Assembly (NCBI GenBank): GCA_017549805.1
Contig: JAFYNJ010000006.1
Span: 1-64,000, forward strand
Length of the DNA stretch: 64,000 nucleotides
Direction of reading: 5' to 3'
Origin: Bacteroidales bacterium
Lineage (GTDB): Bacteria; Bacteroidota; Bacteroidia; Bacteroidales; F082
Shown here: one piece after another, positions 55,518-64,000 of the stretch
Numbering within the stretch: position 1 is the first letter of the stretch
How the letters are laid out: every line of letters starts with the position of its first letter
Made by a program: the position numbers and the translations under genes
Notes under the pieces: generated by a model
Seen by the model: the letters and a program-made list of their open reading frames with translations, nothing else
Databases searched by the model: none
Told to the model about the DNA's origin: nothing

Positions 55518-57797
55518 TCACTGTGCAGTAAAGTTAAATGCCTGTGTTGATGCTGACGAATTTCCGCCGAGGTAGAGCCCGTGGAATGTTGTTGTCGGGT
55601 TGGTAGGCGCCTGATCGCCGTACTTCACAAAATAGGTGTTGCCGCTCACCATACCTGTTGCGGTGATTAGGGCGAGGTTGCTTGTGCAGTTTGCCTCAAA
55701 GCTGAACGTCACCATATTGGTGCCGCCTGAGCCGCTAGTGTTCGACAGGGTATAGTATTTTCCTGTTTGGAATGTATAACTGTTGGTGTAGAATTTGTAA
55801 CCTTGTGCCGGGTTGGTGATGGTACCTCCACTGCCGCCTCCGCCGGGCCAGCCACCACCTTGTGAGCCGCCAGCGCTAATTCCGATGCCAGTGCCTGTAA
55901 TGCGGATATAATTGTTATTGTCGCAGTCAAAGCCTTCCTCTGGGTTGCCTCTGGTGGTGTAGGCGAAAGCTACGCCATTGCCGATGGTGATGGCGCCAGC
56001 TGTTCCTGCATTGGAGTCAACGGCGTCGTTGCCGTTGCTGAAACACACTGTCACACCGCCGTTGAACAAAATCTTGCCTTTGGAGTTGATGCAGTCGTCG
56101 TAGCATTTGAAGTAGTGCTGGCCGCCTTCAATGTCGATTTGAGTCTTGGATTCCAAGCCTTCGGCGCCGTTTGAAGTGGTTGTGACGGTTGTTGTTCCGC
56201 CGTAAAGGGTTGCTAAGCCACCCACTTTGATGCCTTTTGCCGAAGATTTTGTTGACGAACCGCCGCCACCAGGACCTGGAGGCCATCCGCCGCCACCCGA
56301 GCCTATCTGCGCACCTGTCGTTGAGATGATGAGGGTGGGGCCGGTGCCGTCAGGGTTGCCTTGTGTGTAGGTGCCTGTATAGGTGTTGCCATTCTTTTTG
56401 CCCACTTTGATGCCTTTGCCAGCCTTGCCGGTGCTGTTGAGGGTGATGTTGCCGCTCAGGATCTGCATGTTGCCTTCAGCGCGGAGGCAAGAACTGGAAT
56501 AGGTGTCGGTAGGTGAAGTGGCGGGGTAGGTGGCACCATCGCCGTGGGTTTCGATGTGGATGGTGTTGTTGCCGCTGATGGTCATGTCGCCGGCACAAGA
56601 GATGCCCTTGCCGCCATGGTTGGTGGTCGGGAGGTTGATGGTGATGTTGCCACCGCTGATGAGGATGTTGGCATCGCCCTTGATGGCGGTGCAATAGGTA
56701 GGATCATTGTCGATGATCTCGGTGGAGCCGCTTGAGAGGATTTCGATGGTGCCACCGCTGATGGCAATGTCCTGATCACACTTGATGCCCTTTGAAATGT
56801 CGCCTGAATGCTCGATTTCGAGGGTGCCTCCATGGATGAACAGGAGGCTGTCGGCCTTGATGCCTTTGGCATCGTAACCTGTGCAGTTGATATCGAGATG
56901 TCCGTCATCCATGGTAAAGACACCGGAGACCTTGATGCCTCGCTGGCTTTCGGCGGTTGTATTGATGGTAAGATTGCCGTTCTGAATGGTGACATCGCCG
57001 GAAACGTCAAGGCCGTCGGAGCCTGCCGCCATGATGTTGAGCGAACCTCCGTTCCAATAGATGTCATGGTTTCCGTGGATGCCATCGCTGTCGGTCTCTG
57101 TAATTACAATATTGCCGCTGTTGACGGTCATGTTGCCGTCTGCGTTGATTCCATGCTTGGCATTGCCAGTCACTCGCAAAGTGCCATTGCCGTTCACGAT
57201 AAGATTGCCTGTGGCTTGGAAGGCCGCTTTTGCTGAGCTGTTGGCTCCATCGGCAATGGTGCAGATGCCCTCGACGTTAAGGTTCGCGTTCACGGCCGAA
57301 GCGAGGTTGATGGCTGCAGTGGTGTTGCTGGTCAGTGACAGGTAACTAAGTGTTAGGTCGAAAGCGGAGTTGCTGTAGATGGTCAGCGAGCCGTTGGTTG
57401 AACTGCCTGTAACAAAGTAGTTGACGCCAGCCTTGGTGGAGTTCACTGTGACGTTGGCATCGTTGGAGGTGACCTCGATGCCTTCGTCGGCGTAAGGGTT
57501 GACAACAGACACGGAACTGTTGCTATAGGTTATGGTCACGGCATCGCCGGGTTGCGGAACTTCTTGAAGCACAAAAGTAATGCTGTCGAATGCAGTCACA
57601 GGAAACGCGTTGATGCCTCCGTTGGTGTTGAAATAGAGCGATGTGGGCGAGCTTCCTTGGAAATATAGGTTGTTGATCTCGTTGACGTTGTTCTGGTAAA
57701 TGACTTGTCCCGATTGGTGCAGGTTGATGTAGTATTCCTGGGCCTGAAGTCCGATGCAGCTGATGAGCAAAGCTGCCAAAAATGCCAACTTTCTCAT
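55518..57797 (-). CDS. Beta-helix carbohydrate-binding-type surface protein (Cthe_2159 family)
   Basis: Exported protein of 759 aa with a signal peptide (1-19, CIGLQAQ). After a short N-terminal module (LYFNTNGGINAFPVTAFDSITF) comes a right-handed beta-helix built of many turns of the type GNLTIN-A-KGIKV and GGTIEI-SSG (about 110-600). Two Gly/Pro/Trp-rich inserts follow (GSGGGGWPPGPGGGG and GGSQGGGWPGGGGSGG). This resembles the calcium-dependent, polygalacturonate-binding Cthe_2159 family. There is no T9SS sorting domain at its end. Its start overlaps the stop of a small T9SS-domain gene by 4 bases, so the two are coupled. Confidence 0.8.
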   Translation of the reverse strand: MRKLAFLAALLISCIGLQAQEYYINLHQSGQVIYQNNVNEINNLYFQGSSPTSLYFNTNGGINAFPVTAFDSITFVLQEVPQPGDAVTITYSNSSVSVVNPYADEGIEVTSNDANVTVNSTKAGVNYFVTGSSTNGSLTIYSNSAFDLTLSYLSLTSNTTAAINLASAVNANLNVEGICTIADGANSSAKAAFQATGNLIVNGNGTLRVTGNAKHGINADGNMTVNSGNIVITETDSDGIHGNHDIYWNGGSLNIMAAGSDGLDVSGDVTIQNGNLTINTTAESQRGIKVSGVFTMDDGHLDINCTGYDAKGIKADSLLFIHGGTLEIEHSGDISKGIKCDQDIAISGGTIEILSSGSTEIIDNDPTYCTAIKGDANILISGGNITINLPTTNHGGKGISCAGDMTISGNNTIHIETHGDGATYPATSPTDTYSSSCLRAEGNMQILSGNITLNSTGKAGKGIKVGKKNGNTYTGTYTQGNPDGTGPTLIISTTGAQIGSGGGGWPPGPGGGGSSTKSSAKGIKVGGLATLYGGTTTVTTTSNGAEGLESKTQIDIEGGQHYFKCYDDCINSKGKILFNGGVTVCFSNGNDAVDSNAGTAGAITIGNGVAFAYTTRGNPEEGFDCDNNNYIRITGTGIGISAGGSQGGGWPGGGGSGGTITNPAQGYKFYTNSYTFQTGKYYTLSNTSGSGGTNMVTFSFEANCTSNLALITATGMVSGNTYFVKYGDQAPTNPTTTFHGLYLGGNSSASTQAFNFTAQ

Positions 57798-58282
57798 AGC
57801 TTCATCAGTTTTAAGGTTTTACCATCGATATTCAGCAAATACATGCCTCGCATCAAGTCGGTAATATCAACCGACATGCCTTCGGAGGCTTGGAAAACCT
57901 TGACGAGACGGCCGTCGAGGGTGTAAATCCGTGCGATGCTAGTGCCCGTTAGGTTTTGGATTATGAAGCGGTCGTGGGACGGATTGGGCGCGATCTGCAG
58001 TTGGGATGCGTCGTTTTCTGGAATGCCAGTTGTTTCTGTACAGACGATTTTCCGAATCCTTGAAAGATCCAAAGCCGTTGTGATGCCAACATTGTCAACG
58101 ATGATGACTTTCTCGCCGTTTTCAAAATAGAGTTGGCTGTTTTCTGAGAGTTGGTAAGTCAGCTCTTCGCCGTCAGTGGTGGTGACGATGAGGGAAACAT
58201 TGGTGCTTTGGGCGCTTGAGTGGAAAGCGATTCCGATGAGGAATGCGATGAGCATCAATGCTTTAAATACGGAAAGTCTCAT
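57794..58282 (-). CDS. Small exported protein with T9SS sorting domain
   Basis: Protein of 162 aa from ATG 58282, whose signal peptide is KALMLIAFLIGIAFHSSAQ. A short module (TYQLSENSQLYFENGEKVII, then LSRIRKIVC) resembles the N-terminal module of the next protein. A T9SS type A domain follows (IAPNPSHDRFIIQNL, IYTLDGRLVKVF, RGMYLLNI). The longer open frame to 58429 is rejected because it crosses the -7 box at 58320-58313. It ends in an ATGA overlap with the beta-helix protein gene. Its function is unknown; it may be a surface partner of that protein. Confidence 0.75.
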   Translation of the reverse strand: MRLSVFKALMLIAFLIGIAFHSSAQSTNVSLIVTTTDGEELTYQLSENSQLYFENGEKVIIVDNVGITTALDLSRIRKIVCTETTGIPENDASQLQIAPNPSHDRFIIQNLTGTSIARIYTLDGRLVKVFQASEGMSVDITDLMRGMYLLNIDGKTLKLMKL

Positions 58283-58312
58283 AATAAGGGGCGTTTTACT
58301 GAAATTAAACGC

Positions 58313-58320
58313 CAAAGATA
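58313..58320 (-). promoter_or_regulatory. -7 box for the small T9SS protein / beta-helix protein pair
   Basis: The minus strand reads TATCTTTG, a full TAnnTTTG match, 30 bases before the start at 58282. No -33 TTG was seen. Confidence 0.55.
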
Positions 58321-58389
58321 ATAATTTATTCGAATTAGGAGTTTGTTTTTTATCTGGAATCTTCAGTAGTGTACATGAAAAAACTTTTT

Positions 58390-58420
58390 TTGCGAGTTGC
58401 AAAAAAAAGTCGTAATTTTG
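58390..58420 (+). promoter_or_regulatory. Promoter of the steroid-type reductase operon
   Basis: -7 box TAATTTTG (58413-58420) and -33 TTG (58390-58392) with 20-base spacing. The ATG of the first gene follows 7 bases later, so the transcript is almost leaderless. It is the only promoter found before five tightly packed genes (58428-63258). Confidence 0.72.
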
Positions 58421-58427
58421 CAACTTC

Positions 58428-59153
58428 ATGTCTTATAACAAAGTAAAATATTATCGGATATTCAAATGGACGCTGGTGCTGTCCATGTTGGTCTTCCTTT
58501 GGGGTTGCGGTTTCTTCTCCTCGTTCCGTTCGACTAGGGTAAGAGATGATGGGTATTGCGAAGAGGAAGAGCGTCAACGCATGGAGGAAGAAGAGCGCCG
58601 TTACCATGCGGAGATGGCTCGTTATTTCGATTCCCTCAAGAGGATCGAATATGAACATTTCTACGATTCGTGCGAACTGGTGCTTCAAGAGGAATGGGAT
58701 TCCATCATGCGCAGCATGGTTGATACGGTAGGGGTGAACGAATTTGTCATGGCGCTTGCCGATAGTATCATCGAGTATGCCAAGGAGTTCATGCATGTTC
58801 CGTACGTCCATGGAGGCAACGGTCCCACCTGTTTCGACTGTTCGGGATTCACCAAGTTTGTTTTCAAGAAATTCGGCTATCAGCTGAAACGCACTGTACC
58901 GGGGCAGTTGAGCGATGGCTGGAAGGTGATCAAAAACCGTGATGAACTCCGTCGGGGTGATTTGGCGTTTTTCGGGGGACGCGCGGTTCCCACTCAAATG
59001 GGGCATGTGGCCATCATTGTGGACAATGATCCTGTAACACATCGCTTTACTTTCATTCATGCTACCTTGAATGAGGGTATCACCATTTCCGCCTCCGATG
59101 AAAAATACTATAAAATACGCTACATGACCGCATGTAGAATCCTTCCAGATTAG
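58428..59153 (+). CDS. NlpC/P60-family lipoprotein, putative cell-wall endopeptidase
   Basis: Protein of 241 aa with a lipoprotein signal peptide (lipobox FLWGC, Cys27). A Glu/Arg-rich helical region (about 44-75) is followed by a C40 peptidase domain with FDCSGFTKFVF (catalytic Cys138), GHVAIIVDN (His193) and FIHA (His211 region). Such enzymes cut D-gamma-glutamyl-diaminopimelate bonds in peptidoglycan. It is the first gene of the operon and lies 4 bases before the beta-propeller gene. Why a wall enzyme leads a steroid-type reductase operon is not obvious; it may simply be co-transcribed. Confidence 0.87.
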   Translation: MSYNKVKYYRIFKWTLVLSMLVFLWGCGFFSSFRSTRVRDDGYCEEEERQRMEEEERRYHAEMARYFDSLKRIEYEHFYDSCELVLQEEWDSIMRSMVDTVGVNEFVMALADSIIEYAKEFMHVPYVHGGNGPTCFDCSGFTKFVFKKFGYQLKRTVPGQLSDGWKVIKNRDELRRGDLAFFGGRAVPTQMGHVAIIVDNDPVTHRFTFIHATLNEGITISASDEKYYKIRYMTACRILPD

Positions 59154-59157
59154 CGAT

Positions 59158-60477
59158 ATGAGATCTTTTTACTTGTTTTTGGCATTCTTTCTCTTCGTTT
59201 TTCCTGTCTCATTCCAGGCCCAAGAGGCAGCAAAGCCTGCTTCCAGCCAGCCCAAGGCGATCCATCCCGACATCGGCAACTCGGTCAGTTCCTACGATGG
59301 CCAGTTCTCCATCACCTTGCTGACGAAGAAGCAGTATTATTCGCGCTCCGACACCTTGACCATGGATCCCGACATCCGCTCTCCCAAGTCGATCCATATC
59401 CATCCATCGGGGGAAAAGTACTATGTGAATTCGTTGGAAGGTGCCAGGACAGTGGTGTATGAGTCGGCCACCAACACCAAGATAAAAGTGATTCATCACA
59501 ACTTCAACAGGGCGGACACCTTGCTGTGGAGCAAACCATCTGGGTTGTATCCGTTCACGCATTACAAGAATAACCTCAACACCTTTTCTGGAAAGCCTGT
59601 GGAGAGCGCCTTCTCGCATGGTGGACGCTACCTATGGGTGCCTTATTACCGGCGCAGCTACGACATCAACGCGCAAGATCCTTCGGCGGTGGCCGTCATC
59701 GATACCGAGACGGATTCCATCATCAAGCTGATGGAGACGGGTCCGCTGCCTAAGATGATTGCGGTTTCAAACAACAATAGGTATGTGGCCGTCACGCATT
59801 GGGGCGACAATACGGTGGGCATCATCGACATCTCCAGCGATTCTCCGAAAGACTGGCATCATGTTGCCTGTGTGACAGTGAAATACAAGCTGACACTTAA
59901 TTTCAGCATGACCTCACAGGTCAACCGCGACGTCAATAGCGGAATGTGTCTGCGTGGGACGGCTTTCACGCCCGATGACCGCTATCTTTTGGTGGGTGCC
60001 ATGGGAGGTGGCGGTGGCATCTCGGTGATCGACATGGAGGACTTTACCTATAAGGGAACGGTGCAAGGCATGATGAACAATTTGAGGCATCTTGTCATTC
60101 GAGGCAATTACATTTATTTGAGTATCAATAAGACTGGATATATCCAGCGGGCTCCTTTGGACGCTTTTATGGATACAGTGGCAAATATGAAGAATGGCAA
60201 GGCGCGTTTCGAGAATTGGACCAACTGCAAGGTGGGCTCAGGCGCGAGGACGATTGAAGTCACAAGCGACGGCTGCTATGTCATCGCTGCGTGCAATTCC
60301 AGCAACTGCTTGTCGGTGGTGGATGCGGAAACCATGCAACCTGTTGCGACCATTTCCGCCGACTCCTATCCTGTGGGGTTGGACATTTCTGAGGATTGCC
60401 GGTTTGTTTATCTCACTTCTCAGGCCAGAGAAGGCAGGGGAGGCAACTGCGTGGATATCTTTAAATTGAAGTATTGA
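59158..60477 (+). CDS. Exported YncE-like beta-propeller protein
   Basis: Protein of 439 aa with a signal peptide (1-21, FPVSFQA). A seven-bladed, YncE/cytochrome-D1-like propeller follows, shown by repeats of the type VAVIDTETDSIIKLMETGPLP, PKMIAVSNNNRYVAVTHWGDN, ISVIDMEDFTYKGTV and LSVVDAETMQPVATISADSYP. No catalytic residues are evident; such propellers bind ligands or proteins in the periplasm or at the surface. It is separated by 2 bases from the 5-alpha-reductase gene and 4 bases from the NlpC/P60 gene, so it belongs to the same transcript. Confidence 0.8.
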   Translation: MRSFYLFLAFFLFVFPVSFQAQEAAKPASSQPKAIHPDIGNSVSSYDGQFSITLLTKKQYYSRSDTLTMDPDIRSPKSIHIHPSGEKYYVNSLEGARTVVYESATNTKIKVIHHNFNRADTLLWSKPSGLYPFTHYKNNLNTFSGKPVESAFSHGGRYLWVPYYRRSYDINAQDPSAVAVIDTETDSIIKLMETGPLPKMIAVSNNNRYVAVTHWGDNTVGIIDISSDSPKDWHHVACVTVKYKLTLNFSMTSQVNRDVNSGMCLRGTAFTPDDRYLLVGAMGGGGGISVIDMEDFTYKGTVQGMMNNLRHLVIRGNYIYLSINKTGYIQRAPLDAFMDTVANMKNGKARFENWTNCKVGSGARTIEVTSDGCYVIAACNSSNCLSVVDAETMQPVATISADSYPVGLDISEDCRFVYLTSQAREGRGGNCVDIFKLKY

Positions 60478-60479
60478 TA

Positions 60480-61247
60480 ATGACATTGCATCAGTTCAAC
60501 TTGTTCCTCATTGTCATGGCCGTCATCGCCTTGGTGGTGTATGTGAGCCTGTTCTTTGTGGATGCGGGCTATGGCAAATTCTATGACAAAAAGTGGGGGC
60601 CGTCCGTCAACAACAAGTTGGGTTGGGTGCTCATGGAAGCGCCTGTATTCATTGCCATGCTGGTGCTGTGGCTCTGTTCCGACAGGCGTGGCGACTTGGT
60701 GCGGCTTGCTTTTCTGTTTTTGTTCGAGTTGCATTATTTCCAGCGCTCTTTTGTGTTTCCTTTTCGCCTTCGCGGAAAAAGCATGATGCCGTTCTCCATC
60801 ATTTTGATGGGGGTGGTGTTCAATGTGCTGAACGCCTTGATGCAGGGCGGCTGGATCTTCTATTTCTCGCCTGTCGACTACTATGGACGCGACTGGCTGA
60901 CTACGCCGAAGTTTATCGTCGGTTTCCTGCTCTTCATCATCGGGATGTACATCAACATCCAGTCGGACGACATTATCCGCAACTTGCGCAAAAACGGCGA
61001 CTCAAGGCATTATCTTCCCAAAGAGGGCATGTTCCGCTATGTCACTTCGGCCAATTATTTCGGTGAGTTCATCGAGTGGGTGGGCTTCGCCATTCTTACC
61101 TGGTCGTGGGCTGGTGCCGTGTTCGCTTGGTGGACATTTGCCAATTTGGCGCCACGCGCCCACCGCATTTACGATACCTACAAAAGGGAGTTCGGCGATG
61201 AGCTCGACACTAAGAAGACAAGGCGTTTCATCCCATTCATTTGGTAA
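60480..61247 (+). CDS. Steroid 5-alpha-reductase family membrane enzyme (SRD5A-like)
   Basis: Membrane protein of 255 aa with about seven helices, strikingly like vertebrate SRD5A1/2 in motif order and length. WVLMEAPVF carries the likely substrate-binding Glu53. HYFQRSFVFPF at 85-95 includes the Tyr86 equivalent. GMYINIQSDDIIRNLR (155-170) and the NADPH-binding SANYFGEFIEWVGFA (190-204) follow, and the protein ends in RRFIPFIW. The family reduces the delta4 bond of 3-oxo-delta4-steroids with NADPH to 5-alpha products. A gut-type bile acid or steroid hormone substrate is inferred from context. I choose ATG 60480; a TTG two codons earlier overlaps the upstream stop. Confidence 0.9.
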   Translation: MTLHQFNLFLIVMAVIALVVYVSLFFVDAGYGKFYDKKWGPSVNNKLGWVLMEAPVFIAMLVLWLCSDRRGDLVRLAFLFLFELHYFQRSFVFPFRLRGKSMMPFSIILMGVVFNVLNALMQGGWIFYFSPVDYYGRDWLTTPKFIVGFLLFIIGMYINIQSDDIIRNLRKNGDSRHYLPKEGMFRYVTSANYFGEFIEWVGFAILTWSWAGAVFAWWTFANLAPRAHRIYDTYKREFGDELDTKKTRRFIPFIW

Positions 61248-61262
61248 TAAAGACTTGCGTTT

Positions 61263-62492
61263 ATGGAATCAAAGATATTCACTCCCTGCCAGATCGGTCC
61301 CGTCACCTTGCGTAACAGGGTGATCCGTTCCGCTGCTTTTGAGAACATGGCCTACGGCAACCGGCCTTCAAAGGATTTGTTCGACTACCATGTGGCGGTG
61401 GCTCGTGGTGGTGTGGGTATGACCACGGTGGCGTATGCCGCCGTAAGCCAATCGGGCCTTTCGTTCGACGGCCAGCTGTGGATGCGTGAAGAGATCGTGC
61501 CTGAGCTGAAGCAGCTTACCGATGCCATCCATGCCGAAGGAGCCAAGGCTTCCATTCAGTTGGGCCATTGTGGCAACATGACGCATCGTGCCACCTGCGG
61601 CTGCAGACCCGTTGGAGCTTCAGGAGGCTTCAACCTTTATTCCCCGACCTTGGTTAGGAAACTCAAGGTAGAGGAGATACATGCCTTGGTGAAAGACTTC
61701 GGGCATGCCGTAGAGCTGGCTCGCCAAGCGGGTTTCGACTGTGTGGAGATCCATGCTGGACACGGCTATCTGATCAGCCAGTTCCTGTCGCCTTACACCA
61801 ATCGTCGTCATGATGAGTTTGGTGGCAGCTTGGAAAACAGGATGCGTTTCATGCGACTTGTCATCGAGGAGGTGATGCGTGTGGCGGCCGACGATATGGG
61901 CGTGGTGGTCAAGGTGAACATGCACGACGGCTTCCGTCGCGGCATGCAACAGGAGGAATGCCTCAAGGTGGCGCAGGAGCTGGAGCGTCTTGGCGTGCAT
62001 GCCTTGGTGTTGACGGCTGGCTTCGTGAGCAAGGCCCCGATGGAGGTGATGCGTGGCGCTATGCCGTTGAAGACCTTGCGTTATTACATGGATGTGAAGA
62101 AGTTTTGGTGGCTCAAGGCTGGATTGGTCTTTGTCGGCCGCATGATGATTCCCACGAGACCTTATAGCGAAGGCTATTTCCTGGAGGATGCCAAGGTGTT
62201 CCGTGCCCATTTGAAGATGCCTTTGATCTATGTGGGCGGCTTGATCTCCAAGGAGAAGATGGAGGAGGTGCTCGATGCCGGTTTCATGGGCTTGCAGGTG
62301 GCGCGCGCCTTGGTGCACGACACGGAGTTTGTGAACAAACTCCAGCGCGGCGAGATCACTCGCAGCGGCTGCAAGCACTCCAACTACTGCATAGGCCGCA
62401 TGTACACGCTGGAGATGAAATGTCACCATTGTGTGGAGAATCTGCCGGAACGCTTGCAAAAAGAAATTGACGAAGCAGAGAGAACCTTGTGA
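61263..62492 (+). CDS. NADH:flavin oxidoreductase of the old yellow enzyme family
   Basis: FMN-dependent TIM-barrel reductase of 409 aa. Motifs are TLRNRVIRSA near the FMN site, SIQLGHCGN (98-105), the catalytic His pair in EIHAGHGYL (162-170), SPYTNRRHDEFGGSLENR (176-193) and VGGLISKEKMEEVLDAGF. Near the end are four cysteines (C370, C376, C387, C390) in a CX5C-X10-CX2C arrangement, possibly a remnant or variant Fe-S site. It lacks the C-terminal FAD/NAD domain of BaiCD/BaiH and 2,4-dienoyl-CoA reductases. Next to a 5-alpha-reductase it could act as 3-oxo-delta4-steroid 5-beta-reductase or a delta-specific ene-reductase; this is inference. Spacing to neighbours is 15 and 1 bases. Confidence 0.88.
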   Translation: MESKIFTPCQIGPVTLRNRVIRSAAFENMAYGNRPSKDLFDYHVAVARGGVGMTTVAYAAVSQSGLSFDGQLWMREEIVPELKQLTDAIHAEGAKASIQLGHCGNMTHRATCGCRPVGASGGFNLYSPTLVRKLKVEEIHALVKDFGHAVELARQAGFDCVEIHAGHGYLISQFLSPYTNRRHDEFGGSLENRMRFMRLVIEEVMRVAADDMGVVVKVNMHDGFRRGMQQEECLKVAQELERLGVHALVLTAGFVSKAPMEVMRGAMPLKTLRYYMDVKKFWWLKAGLVFVGRMMIPTRPYSEGYFLEDAKVFRAHLKMPLIYVGGLISKEKMEEVLDAGFMGLQVARALVHDTEFVNKLQRGEITRSGCKHSNYCIGRMYTLEMKCHHCVENLPERLQKEIDEAERTL

Positions 62493-62493
62493 T

Positions 62494-63258
62494 ATGAGAG
62501 CTTTGATCACGGGCGGCAGCTCAGGCATGGGGCTGGAATATGCGAGGCAGTTGGCAGCCAAAGGCCACGACTTGCTTTTGGTGAGCAACCAACAGGAAGA
62601 GCTGACCAAAGCTGCGAAACAGCTCTCACAAACATACAGCGTCGATGTGATTTCCTGTTATCAAGATCTGGCTGTCGAGACAGCTGCTGAGGAGTTGTTC
62701 TCGTTTTGCCAAGAGGAAAACCTCCAAATCGACATCTTGATCAATAATGCCGGCATGTTTTTTTTCGAGGAACTGTCGAATGACAACGAGGCCAAAGCGC
62801 TCACGATGATGCGTTTGCAAATCTATACCCCAACACGTTTATGCGTCTTGTTCGGTGAGGAGATGAAAAAGCGCAAATCAGGTTACATCCTCAACATGTC
62901 GTCGATGGCGGCAAAACTTCCATGCCCCGGCATCACGGTCTATTCTGCCACCAAGGCCTATCTGAAGAGCTTCGGCAAGTCGCTCTATTTCGAGATGCGT
63001 CCCTACGGCGTTGGTGTGACCACGGTTTGTCCCGCGGCCATAGCCACGCCACTTTATAAGCTGAAACCATCTTTGTTGAAATTGGGCGTGAAGGTCGGTT
63101 TGATTGGCACCCCACAATGGCTGGTGCGCCGTGCCTTGAGGAGAATGTTCAAGAAACGTCGTGTCGTCAAACCTGGCTTGATGAACTATTACCTTCCGCC
63201 GTTGATTGCCATCTTGCCGAAGTGGCTGGTGGATCGGCTGTGGAAGAAATACAAATAG
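62494..63258 (+). CDS. Short-chain dehydrogenase/reductase, hydroxysteroid-dehydrogenase-like
   Basis: NAD(P)-dependent SDR of 254 aa. The cofactor motif TGGSSGMG is at residues 6-13, INNAG at 83-87, catalytic Ser136/137, and Tyr150 and Lys154 in YSATK. A basic, hydrophobic C-terminal extension (LVRRALRRMFKKRRV, YYLPPLIAILPKWLVDRLW) resembles membrane-associated 17-beta-HSD12/3-ketoacyl reductase-type SDRs. In this operon it could interconvert 3-oxo and 3-hydroxy steroids; position stereochemistry cannot be read from sequence. The ATG at 62494 lies 1 base after the OYE stop; an upstream in-frame start inside the OYE gene is rejected. Confidence 0.88.
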   Translation: MRALITGGSSGMGLEYARQLAAKGHDLLLVSNQQEELTKAAKQLSQTYSVDVISCYQDLAVETAAEELFSFCQEENLQIDILINNAGMFFFEELSNDNEAKALTMMRLQIYTPTRLCVLFGEEMKKRKSGYILNMSSMAAKLPCPGITVYSATKAYLKSFGKSLYFEMRPYGVGVTTVCPAAIATPLYKLKPSLLKLGVKVGLIGTPQWLVRRALRRMFKKRRVVKPGLMNYYLPPLIAILPKWLVDRLWKKYK

Positions 63259-63274
63259 TTATTTCCATTATATA

Positions 63275-64000
63275 TCATTCTGCCTTGTGCTCCTCGGGGA
63301 CAATGTCGGTGGCGAGTTGGTTGAGTAGTTGGACGGTGTTGTCAAGCCATTTCTTATAAGAAGGATTGTGAAGCACCAGTGATTTGTAATGTTCCAAAGC
63401 TTCTTCAAAAACAGGAATGGCTTGAAGGTTCCGCTCCTGTTGTCTATAGAGCAATCCCAAGCTATAGAGAGAGTTGGCCAACCTTGGCTCAAAGACTTGA
63501 GCGTTGCTGTTTGTCAAGCGTCTGTATATAACTATGGCATCCAGATACATGGCCTCACTTTCCGTGAATCGTTGTCCCCTGTAATACATGTAAGCGAGAC
63601 TGCTTAACGTTGCGACCAAATCGGGATCGTAGGTTTGTGGGGCGTCTTTATCCAGACGTTTGAAGAATTCTAAGGCCTGCAAATACAAGCTTTCGCTTTC
63701 TTCAACACGTTGGGTGTCGTAATATAGGTCGGCAAGTTCGCTCAGTGCTTTGGCCATATAGGGTTCAAGGGATTGTGGACCGTCTTTTTTCAAGCGTCTG
63801 AAGATTTCCAAGGCTTCTAGGAACAAGGGTTCGCTTTCTTTAAGGCGGTGGGTGTTCTTGTACGAGACGGCAAGGTTGTTCAGCGTCATGGCCAAAATGG
63901 GCTCATAGAGCTGTGGGTTGTCTATTGCCAAGCGTCTGTAGATCTCCAAGGCTTCCAAGCGTATCGGATCGCTTTCCGTGTAGCGTTGGGCGTTGTCGTA
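63275..64000 (-). CDS. Tetratricopeptide-repeat protein, C-terminal part (N-terminus beyond window)
   Basis: At least 241 aa; the frame is still open at base 64000 and no true start is visible (the first Met-like codon at 63958 is an internal TTG/Leu). It holds about five TPR units with an unusually regular 46-residue period, each beginning LEALEIYRRL or a variant (F-EALEIFRRL, LQALEFFKRL) and containing LAxLYY and ESExLY. TPR arrays of this kind mediate protein contacts. The gene converges on the SDR gene with a 16-base gap and no hairpin. Whether it is related to the steroid-type operon is unknown. Confidence 0.82.
   Translation of the reverse strand, partial: YDNAQRYTESDPIRLEALEIYRRLAIDNPQLYEPILAMTLNNLAVSYKNTHRLKESEPLFLEALEIFRRLKKDGPQSLEPYMAKALSELADLYYDTQRVEESESLYLQALEFFKRLDKDAPQTYDPDLVATLSSLAYMYYRGQRFTESEAMYLDAIVIYRRLTNSNAQVFEPRLANSLYSLGLLYRQQERNLQAIPVFEEALEHYKSLVLHNPSYKKWLDNTVQLLNQLATDIVPEEHKAE

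What the first reader, a model, noticed from the sequence alone, without database searches (positions are those of the whole stretch)
58390..63258. Five-gene operon with a full set of steroid/bile-acid-type reductases
Seen: one promoter (58390-58420) and five genes with 1-15 base gaps: NlpC/P60 lipoprotein, beta-propeller, SRD5A-like 5-alpha-reductase, old-yellow-enzyme reductase and SDR. The 5-alpha-reductase keeps the family's motif order through the C-terminal NADPH site. Known: some gut Bacteroidales carry 5AR, 5BR and 3-beta-HSDH genes that turn 3-oxo-delta4-bile acids into isoallo-type products. Inference: this operon makes 5-alpha or 5-beta saturated, 3-hydroxy steroids or bile acids, possibly a variant of that pathway with an exported propeller as ligand binder.
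Basis: partly seen in the sequence, partly recalled or inferred. Interest (0 to 1): 0.85.

Follow-up and report, generated by a model that had tools for sequence, protein, structure and literature searches.

The report
Steroid-reductase gene trio in gut Bacteroidales
A gut bacterium carries a conserved set of three genes that probably reduce ring A of steroid-like molecules; it belongs to a kind already described in human gut bacteria, but its close relatives often come from ruminant stomachs, where bile acids are not the obvious substrate.

Summary
The five genes are present with the stated gaps. The membrane protein is an SRD5A-family protein by Pfam, fold and catalytic Glu/Tyr. The unit is three genes, not five: 5AR, OYE and SDR lie together in 20 of 21 same-genus loci fetched and in other Bacteroidales families. 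NlpC and the propeller accompany them in 6 of 145 related loci. In 30 of 31 distinct close relatives without that pair, a Bacteroides-type -7 box precedes 5AR; the window has none there. So the five-gene operon is a local join, and the 'exported ligand binder' idea lacks support. Bacteroidales SRD5A genes form two clades: one largely with this trio (window, Alistipes, Barnesiella, Muribaculaceae), one of lone genes. The trio resembles the described Bacteroidota 5AR/5BR/3beta-HSDH cluster; the characterised proteins could not be compared. Two points go further. The trio clade has replaced two NADPH contacts (His230, Tyr177 of PbSRD5A) that the other clade nearly always keeps. And 15 of the 26 nearest named relatives are labelled as ruminant-stomach or RUG genomes, upstream of bile, while this genome has no bile-salt-hydrolase family match; sterol or hormone ketones are as likely substrates as bile acids. 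Activity is untested.

The parts
60480..61247 (+). 5AR: SRD5A-family integral membrane reductase, 255 aa; catalytic E53/Y86, M52 in place of the family's Gln, I230 and H177 in place of two NADPH contacts
61263..62492 (+). OYE: 409-aa old-yellow-enzyme barrel (H164/H167/Y169) with a conserved Cys tail (C370, C376, C387), no BaiCD-type C-terminal half; candidate 5-beta-reductase/Delta4-dehydrogenase
   Evidence: PF00724 193.5 bits; BaiCD model 194.6 bits, best stretch over positions 3-257 of 642, cut-off 825; conservation in 133 rows
62494..63258 (+). SDR: 254-aa classical short-chain dehydrogenase (TGGSSGMG, S137, Y150, K154); candidate 3-hydroxysteroid dehydrogenase
   Evidence: PF00106 143.9 bits; S137, Y150 and K154 in 114 of 114 rows
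58428..59153 (+). NlpC/P60 lipoprotein joined upstream; not part of the conserved unit
   Evidence: PF00877 68.2 bits; near the trio in L028, L030, L031, L048, L049 and L050 only
59158..60477 (+). Secreted YncE/cytochrome-d1-type beta-propeller joined upstream; not part of the conserved unit
   Evidence: PF02239 36.2 bits; PDB 1l0q 6.6e-13; found in 6 of 145 loci
58389..58420 (+). Bacteroides-type promoter TTTG-N20-TAATTTTG; -7 box starts 15 bases before the NlpC ATG
   Evidence: same -15 position of a TAnnTTTG box before NlpC in L028, L031 and L048, not in L030, L049 or L050

Best explanation
Core unit: three genes, 5AR-OYE-SDR, forming a membrane/cytoplasmic A-ring reduction module of the kind reported for gut Bacteroidota (5AR, 5BR, 3beta-HSDH). 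Shown: the membrane protein is an SRD5A-family protein with the catalytic Glu-Tyr pair, and the three genes are co-conserved. Inferred: 5AR takes a 3-oxo-Delta4 steroid from the membrane and transfers hydride from NAD(P)H to C5 on the alpha face; the OYE reduces the same double bond to the 5-beta product or, in reverse, oxidises 5-beta 3-ketones to Delta4 so that 5AR can turn them into 5-alpha; the SDR reduces the 3-ketone to a 3-hydroxyl. Net result: 5-alpha (allo) 3-hydroxy steroids. The natural substrate in this lineage is undetermined and may well be sterol- or hormone-derived ketones rather than bile acids. The NlpC and propeller genes are a lineage-specific upstream join.
Against: No activity data. 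The Gln of the reported Q-E-Y motif is Met in all 166 Bacteroidales sequences examined, and Q56A/L abolished activity in human SRD5A2 (PMC7815742, passages). Two NADPH contacts are replaced in the trio clade. 13 of the 45 loci of the order draw plus L022-L026 have 5AR without OYE. OYE and SDR reach no curated cut-off among the families shown.
Confidence: 0.68

Rival explanations
1. Bile-acid-dedicated variant: the trio makes iso-allo bile acids as reported for human gut Bacteroidales.
For: Same three enzyme types as reported (PMC12697870, PMC12789469, passages). The trio also occurs in hindgut genomes: horse-faeces, roe-deer-colon and water-deer-rectum titles are among the 80 named loci.
Against: 15 of the 26 named loci at 79% identity or more are labelled reticulum/abomasum (5) or RUG (10; RUG = rumen uncultured genome is recalled), upstream of bile entry. 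No PF02275 match in this genome; 9 of 35 same-genus genomes have one, 2 of them strong.
Confidence: 0.25
2. Sterol or hormone ketone hydrogenation in the rumen: the trio performs the 4-en-3-one to 5-alpha/5-beta stanol steps, using sterol ketones as electron sinks.
For: Ruminant-stomach labels of many close relatives. Herbivore faeces are described as dominated by sitosterol and its 5-alpha and 5-beta products (PMC6366745, passages reporting earlier work). In other gut bacteria a 5-beta-reductase of the OYE family is fused to a 3beta-HSDH/isomerase that acts on pregnenolone, and the authors suggest phytosterols as possible substrates (PMC12238238, passages).
Against: No Delta5-4 isomerase was sought in this genome; no substrate data; the window's own sample source is unknown.
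Confidence: 0.3
3. Non-steroid module: the 5AR-like protein, OYE and SDR saturate another membrane enone such as a quinone, polyprenoid or fatty acyl chain.
For: Remodelled NADPH site and Met for Gln. OYE and SDR resemble generic ene-reductases and dehydrogenases in PDB and NCBIfam. DUF1295 and PEMT profiles also pass their own cut-offs on 5AR (32.5 against 20.4, 25.2 against 25).
Against: PF02544 is far above DUF1295 and PEMT, and the fold matches steroid reductases far better than ICMT. 20 of 35 same-genus genomes carry it, many of the 35 being incomplete, which does not look like a core lipid gene.
Confidence: 0.15
4. A true five-gene operon with an exported propeller capturing the ligand.
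For: Gaps of 1-15 bases and one promoter in the window.
Against: The propeller is in 6 of 145 loci, all close relatives; the relatives without it have their own -7 box before 5AR.
Confidence: 0.05

Closest known systems
Gut Bacteroidota 5AR / 5BR / 3beta-HSDH gene set (isoallo-bile-acid pathway; Sato et al. 2021, seen only through reviews)
   Same: Same three enzyme types side by side; the clade includes Alistipes, a genus for which 5AR is listed
PbSRD5A (PDB 7c83) and human SRD5A2 (7bw1)
   Same: Fold over the whole length, catalytic Glu/Tyr, most NADPH contacts
   Different: Gln to Met; NADPH-contacting His230 to Ile and Tyr177 to His; linkage to OYE and SDR
BaiCD / gut steroid 5-beta-reductase ci2350 (OYE family)
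   Same: OYE barrel with H-x-x-H-x-Y (the BaiCD profile matches its N-terminal part)
   Different: 409 aa, lacks the C-terminal half of the 642-position BaiCD profile; Cys spacing C-X5-C-X10-C; 194.6 bits against cut-off 825. ci2350 itself was not compared by sequence

Membership tests
SRD5A steroid 5-alpha-reductase family (PF02544) | Pfam profile above gathering score | tested here: met
   140 bits, cut-off 22.6
SRD5A steroid 5-alpha-reductase family (PF02544) | SRD5A membrane fold | tested here: met
SRD5A steroid 5-alpha-reductase family (PF02544) | Catalytic Glu57 and Tyr91 (SRD5A2 numbering) | tested here: met
   E53 and Y86 in the window; 146 of 146 trio-clade and 20 of 20 other-clade sequences
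SRD5A steroid 5-alpha-reductase family (PF02544) | Gln56 of the Q-E-Y motif (called highly conserved in the enzymes studied in PMC7815742) | tested here: not met
   Met in 166 of 166 Bacteroidales sequences of both clades. It is a motif of the enzymes studied there, so family kinship stands on profile and fold, but steroid activity is not to be assumed
SRD5A steroid 5-alpha-reductase family (PF02544) | NADPH-site residues N160, D164, R171, N193, E197, R227, H231, Y235 | tested here: inconclusive
   Seven of eight kept in the window; H231 is I230. In the trio clade H231 is I/L/V in 145 of 146 and T in 1; His in 19 of 20 of the other clade
SRD5A steroid 5-alpha-reductase family (PF02544) | NADPH-dependent 5-alpha reduction of 3-oxo-Delta4 steroids | not testable with these tools
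   needs enzyme assay
Bacteroidota 5AR/5BR/3beta-HSDH cluster | Adjacent SRD5A, OYE and SDR genes | tested here: met
   That the published 5BR and 3beta-HSDH are an OYE and an SDR is recalled
Bacteroidota 5AR/5BR/3beta-HSDH cluster | Same clade as the 5AR of genera with reported activity | tested here: inconclusive
   Two Alistipes loci group with the f59 rows (98*) inside the trio clade (100*); P. merdae, Odoribacter and B. dorei sequences not available
Bacteroidota 5AR/5BR/3beta-HSDH cluster | Conversion of 3-oxoLCA / 3-oxo-Delta4-LCA to isoalloLCA | not testable with these tools
   needs culture or heterologous LC-MS assay
BaiCD | NCBIfam NF041087 cut-off 825 bits over 642 positions | tested here: not met
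   194.6 bits, best stretch positions 3-257
DUF1295 / ICMT-type membrane enzymes | Best profile and best fold match of the protein | tested here: not met

The most novel reading that the evidence does not exclude
The 5AR-OYE-SDR trio is a general Bacteroidales sterol/steroid A-ring module that in ruminant-stomach lineages works on plant-sterol or hormone ketones, not bile acids, using an SRD5A subclass with a remodelled cofactor site (His230 and Tyr177 contacts lost), possibly with NADH or altered coupling; bile-acid isomerisation in the human colon would then be a side use of this older module.
Probability: 0.3. Interest if true: 0.6.

Novelty: new member of a known kind. Interest (0 to 1): 0.4.

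Why it matters
If the trio is active, ruminant-stomach bacteria would carry genes able to make 5-alpha/5-beta steroids before bile is added, which bears on how herbivores form stanols, on hormone inactivation in livestock, and on which substrate the human-gut version evolved for. A dairy-cow study of intestinal bile-acid metabolism scored 15 KEGG functions, listed without an SRD5A entry, and reported that cow intestinal MAGs lacked 3beta-HSDH (PMC9750977, passages), so a set like this could be missed by that kind of annotation. The cofactor-site difference between the two Bacteroidales SRD5A clades is directly testable by assay.

Tried and rejected
Five-gene operon with the propeller as ligand binder: rejected on synteny and position of the -7 box. 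DUF1295/ICMT identity: rejected, although DUF1295 and PEMT pass their own cut-offs weakly. Met for Gln in Q-E-Y as a mark of the trio clade: rejected, it occurs in both Bacteroidales clades. A first residue table used the wrong numbering offset for Q53/E54/Y87 and was redone by motif. NCBIfam gave no family for 5AR in the window or in three relatives. A conserved upstream partner was looked for in 22 chosen loci: the widest shared families were in 6 of 22 (one a divergent gene upstream of 5AR in same-genus loci), none general. PHROGs gave nothing for the propeller. In the phylum draw (392 genomes) matches to the window 5AR at 55% identity or more, apart from the own genome, were in two Bacteroidales genomes; outside Bacteroidales the best was 40%. 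Literature: nine searches; I saw no paper on this trio in rumen bacteria in those listings, which is no proof of absence.

Full report
Observation. The five ORFs are present on the + strand with gaps of 4, 2, 15 and 1 bases. Pfam gives NLPC_P60, a YncE/cytochrome-d1-type propeller, Steroid_dh (PF02544, 140 bits), Oxidored_FMN and adh_short. The promoter is an exact match to the Bacteroides pattern TTTG-N19-21-TAnnTTTG (consensus recalled) at 58389-58420; the window holds 4 such matches against 0.68 expected, and 1 of 100 shuffles reached 4. The sigma-70-type scan of 57500-64000 showed no excess (4 found, 6.4 expected) and lists no site at that place.

Two SRD5A clades in Bacteroidales. In 392 Bacteroidales genomes, 156 had a PF02544 match over cut-off; many of these are weak matches under 50 bits that I did not study. 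I fetched 40 loci with scores of about 123-156 bits and 20 of the higher-scoring group, 173-197 bits, besides 25 loci from relatives and 80 named loci. A tree of 78 rows (65 of the first kind, 12 of the second, PbSRD5A; quick method, SH-aLRT only) separates the two kinds with support 100* and 95*; its own checks warn of long branches, PbSRD5A above all, so the root is unsure. The window lies in the first clade with Alistipes, Barnesiella and Muribaculaceae loci. One same-genus locus, L040, has the same 5AR DNA as L061, a contig of Candidatus Limimorpha equi, which places the host near that genus.

Gene neighbourhood. Among 145 loci of the window's clade (134 with distinct 5AR DNA), 132 have an OYE on the same strand within 6 kb and 113 have OYE and SDR; counted by distinct DNA, 121 and 102. 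By source: L027-L046 (same genus) 20 of 20 with both; named loci 80 of 80 with OYE and 72 of 80 with both (this set was picked for 5AR similarity and some contigs are short); the order draw plus L022-L026, 32 of 45 with OYE and 21 of 45 with both. That last set holds one more same-genus locus, L197, with OYE but no SDR match, so for the genus the count is 20 of 21. Of the 13 loci without OYE nine belong to family code f2, two to f79, one each to f4 and f35. In the other clade 0 of 20 loci have an OYE match; one has a weak SDR match. In several loci the SDR comes first (for example L079, L081, L095), so the set survives rearrangement.

NlpC and propeller. A propeller relative is in the fetched stretch of 6 of 145 loci (L028, L030, L031, L048, L049, L050), all close relatives with 87-91% 5AR identity and with an NlpC relative beside it; short contigs may hide others. 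In L028 and L048 a 287-aa gene lies between propeller and 5AR, and in L031 two genes on the other strand do. In close relatives lacking the pair (L029, L032-L046, L051-L072; L027 and L197 were not in this set), a TAnnTTTG box starts 15-48 bases before the 5AR start in 37 of 38 loci (30 of 31 distinct). The same test gives 0 of 38 before OYE and 0 of 37 before SDR. In L073-L127 it gives 10 of 55 (5AR), 0 of 55 (OYE) and 4 of 48 (SDR); in the order draw plus L022-L026 14 of 45, 1 of 32 and 0 of 21; the window has none in the 200 bases before 5AR. The full two-box pattern was found upstream of 5AR in only 2 of the 38. So in close relatives the trio seems to have its own promoter, and in the window's sublineage it lies behind NlpC-propeller.

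Residues. Compared with PbSRD5A, all 146 sequences (145 loci plus window) keep the Glu, Tyr and Arg of the active site and D164, R171, E197, R227 and Y235 (SRD5A2 numbers); N160 is kept in 145 and N193 in 143. The Gln of the Q-E-Y motif is Met in 166 of 166 Bacteroidales sequences. Two changes mark the trio clade: PbSRD5A His230 is Ile 128, Leu 13, Val 4, Thr 1 (His in 19 of 20 of the other clade), and Tyr177 is His in 143 of 146 (Tyr in 20 of 20). Both residues hydrogen-bond NADPH in PbSRD5A, and mutations of the contacts impaired activity (PMC7815742, section 8 read, other passages seen). What the changes do to cofactor use is unknown.

OYE and SDR. The OYE has H164-x-x-H167-x-Y169 in 131 of 133 rows and C370, C376 and C387 in 129-130 of 133. 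Its best stretch covers only positions 3-257 of the 642 of BaiCD (194.6 bits, cut-off 825). An OYE-family protein, ci2350, was shown to be a gut steroid 5-beta-reductase (PMC12238238, passages). The SDR keeps Ser137, Tyr150 and Lys154 in 114 of 114 rows; its steroid role is inferred from context only. No Delta5-4 isomerase search was made.

Ecology. Of the 26 named loci at 79% 5AR identity or more (L048-L072 and L080), 5 titles name reticulum or abomasum, 10 carry RUG labels (recalled: rumen uncultured genomes), 1 duodenum, 1 is Limimorpha equi and 9 name no source. The window's own source is not stated. Bile enters at the duodenum (general knowledge; reflux into the abomasum is possible). PF02275 (bile salt hydrolase family) has no match in the own genome; 9 of 35 same-genus genomes have one over cut-off, 2 of them strong (over 200 bits), one of these, G026, a trio carrier. 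20 of 35 same-genus genomes carry 5AR. Herbivore faeces are described as dominated by sitosterol and its 5-alpha/5-beta products (PMC6366745, passages), which makes sterol ketones a fair alternative substrate.

Known work. [quoted passage not shown]), and list 5AR for Parabacteroides merdae, Odoribacter, Bacteroides dorei and Alistipes, citing Sato et al. 2021 (PMC12789469, passages). The original was not held. The trio is therefore best filed as a new member of that kind, with the substrate open.

Noticed in passing
L023, L026, L181, L187, L190, L191, L193-L195 (family code f2): A Bacteroidales lineage with trio-clade 5AR genes (two fetched copies in three of six genomes) but no OYE or SDR match in the fetched stretch.
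   Followed up: partly
L199-L218: A second Bacteroidales SRD5A clade closer to PbSRD5A (39-48% identity), without OYE neighbours, keeping the NADPH-site His (19 of 20) and Tyr (20 of 20); function unknown.
   Followed up: partly
window 58413-58428; L028, L031, L048: A TAnnTTTG box starts exactly 15 bases before the NlpC start codon in the window and three relatives, which suggests a leaderless transcript or a later true start.
   Followed up: no
window 55518-58429 (-): A Cthe_2159-type carbohydrate-binding protein and a small protein with a Por secretion tail, divergent from the operon; relatives of the pair also flank the trio in loci without NlpC-propeller (L034, L051).
   Followed up: no
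L028 and L048, ending just before 5AR: A 287-aa gene of unknown function with a hydrophobic C-terminal stretch lies between propeller and 5AR.
   Followed up: no
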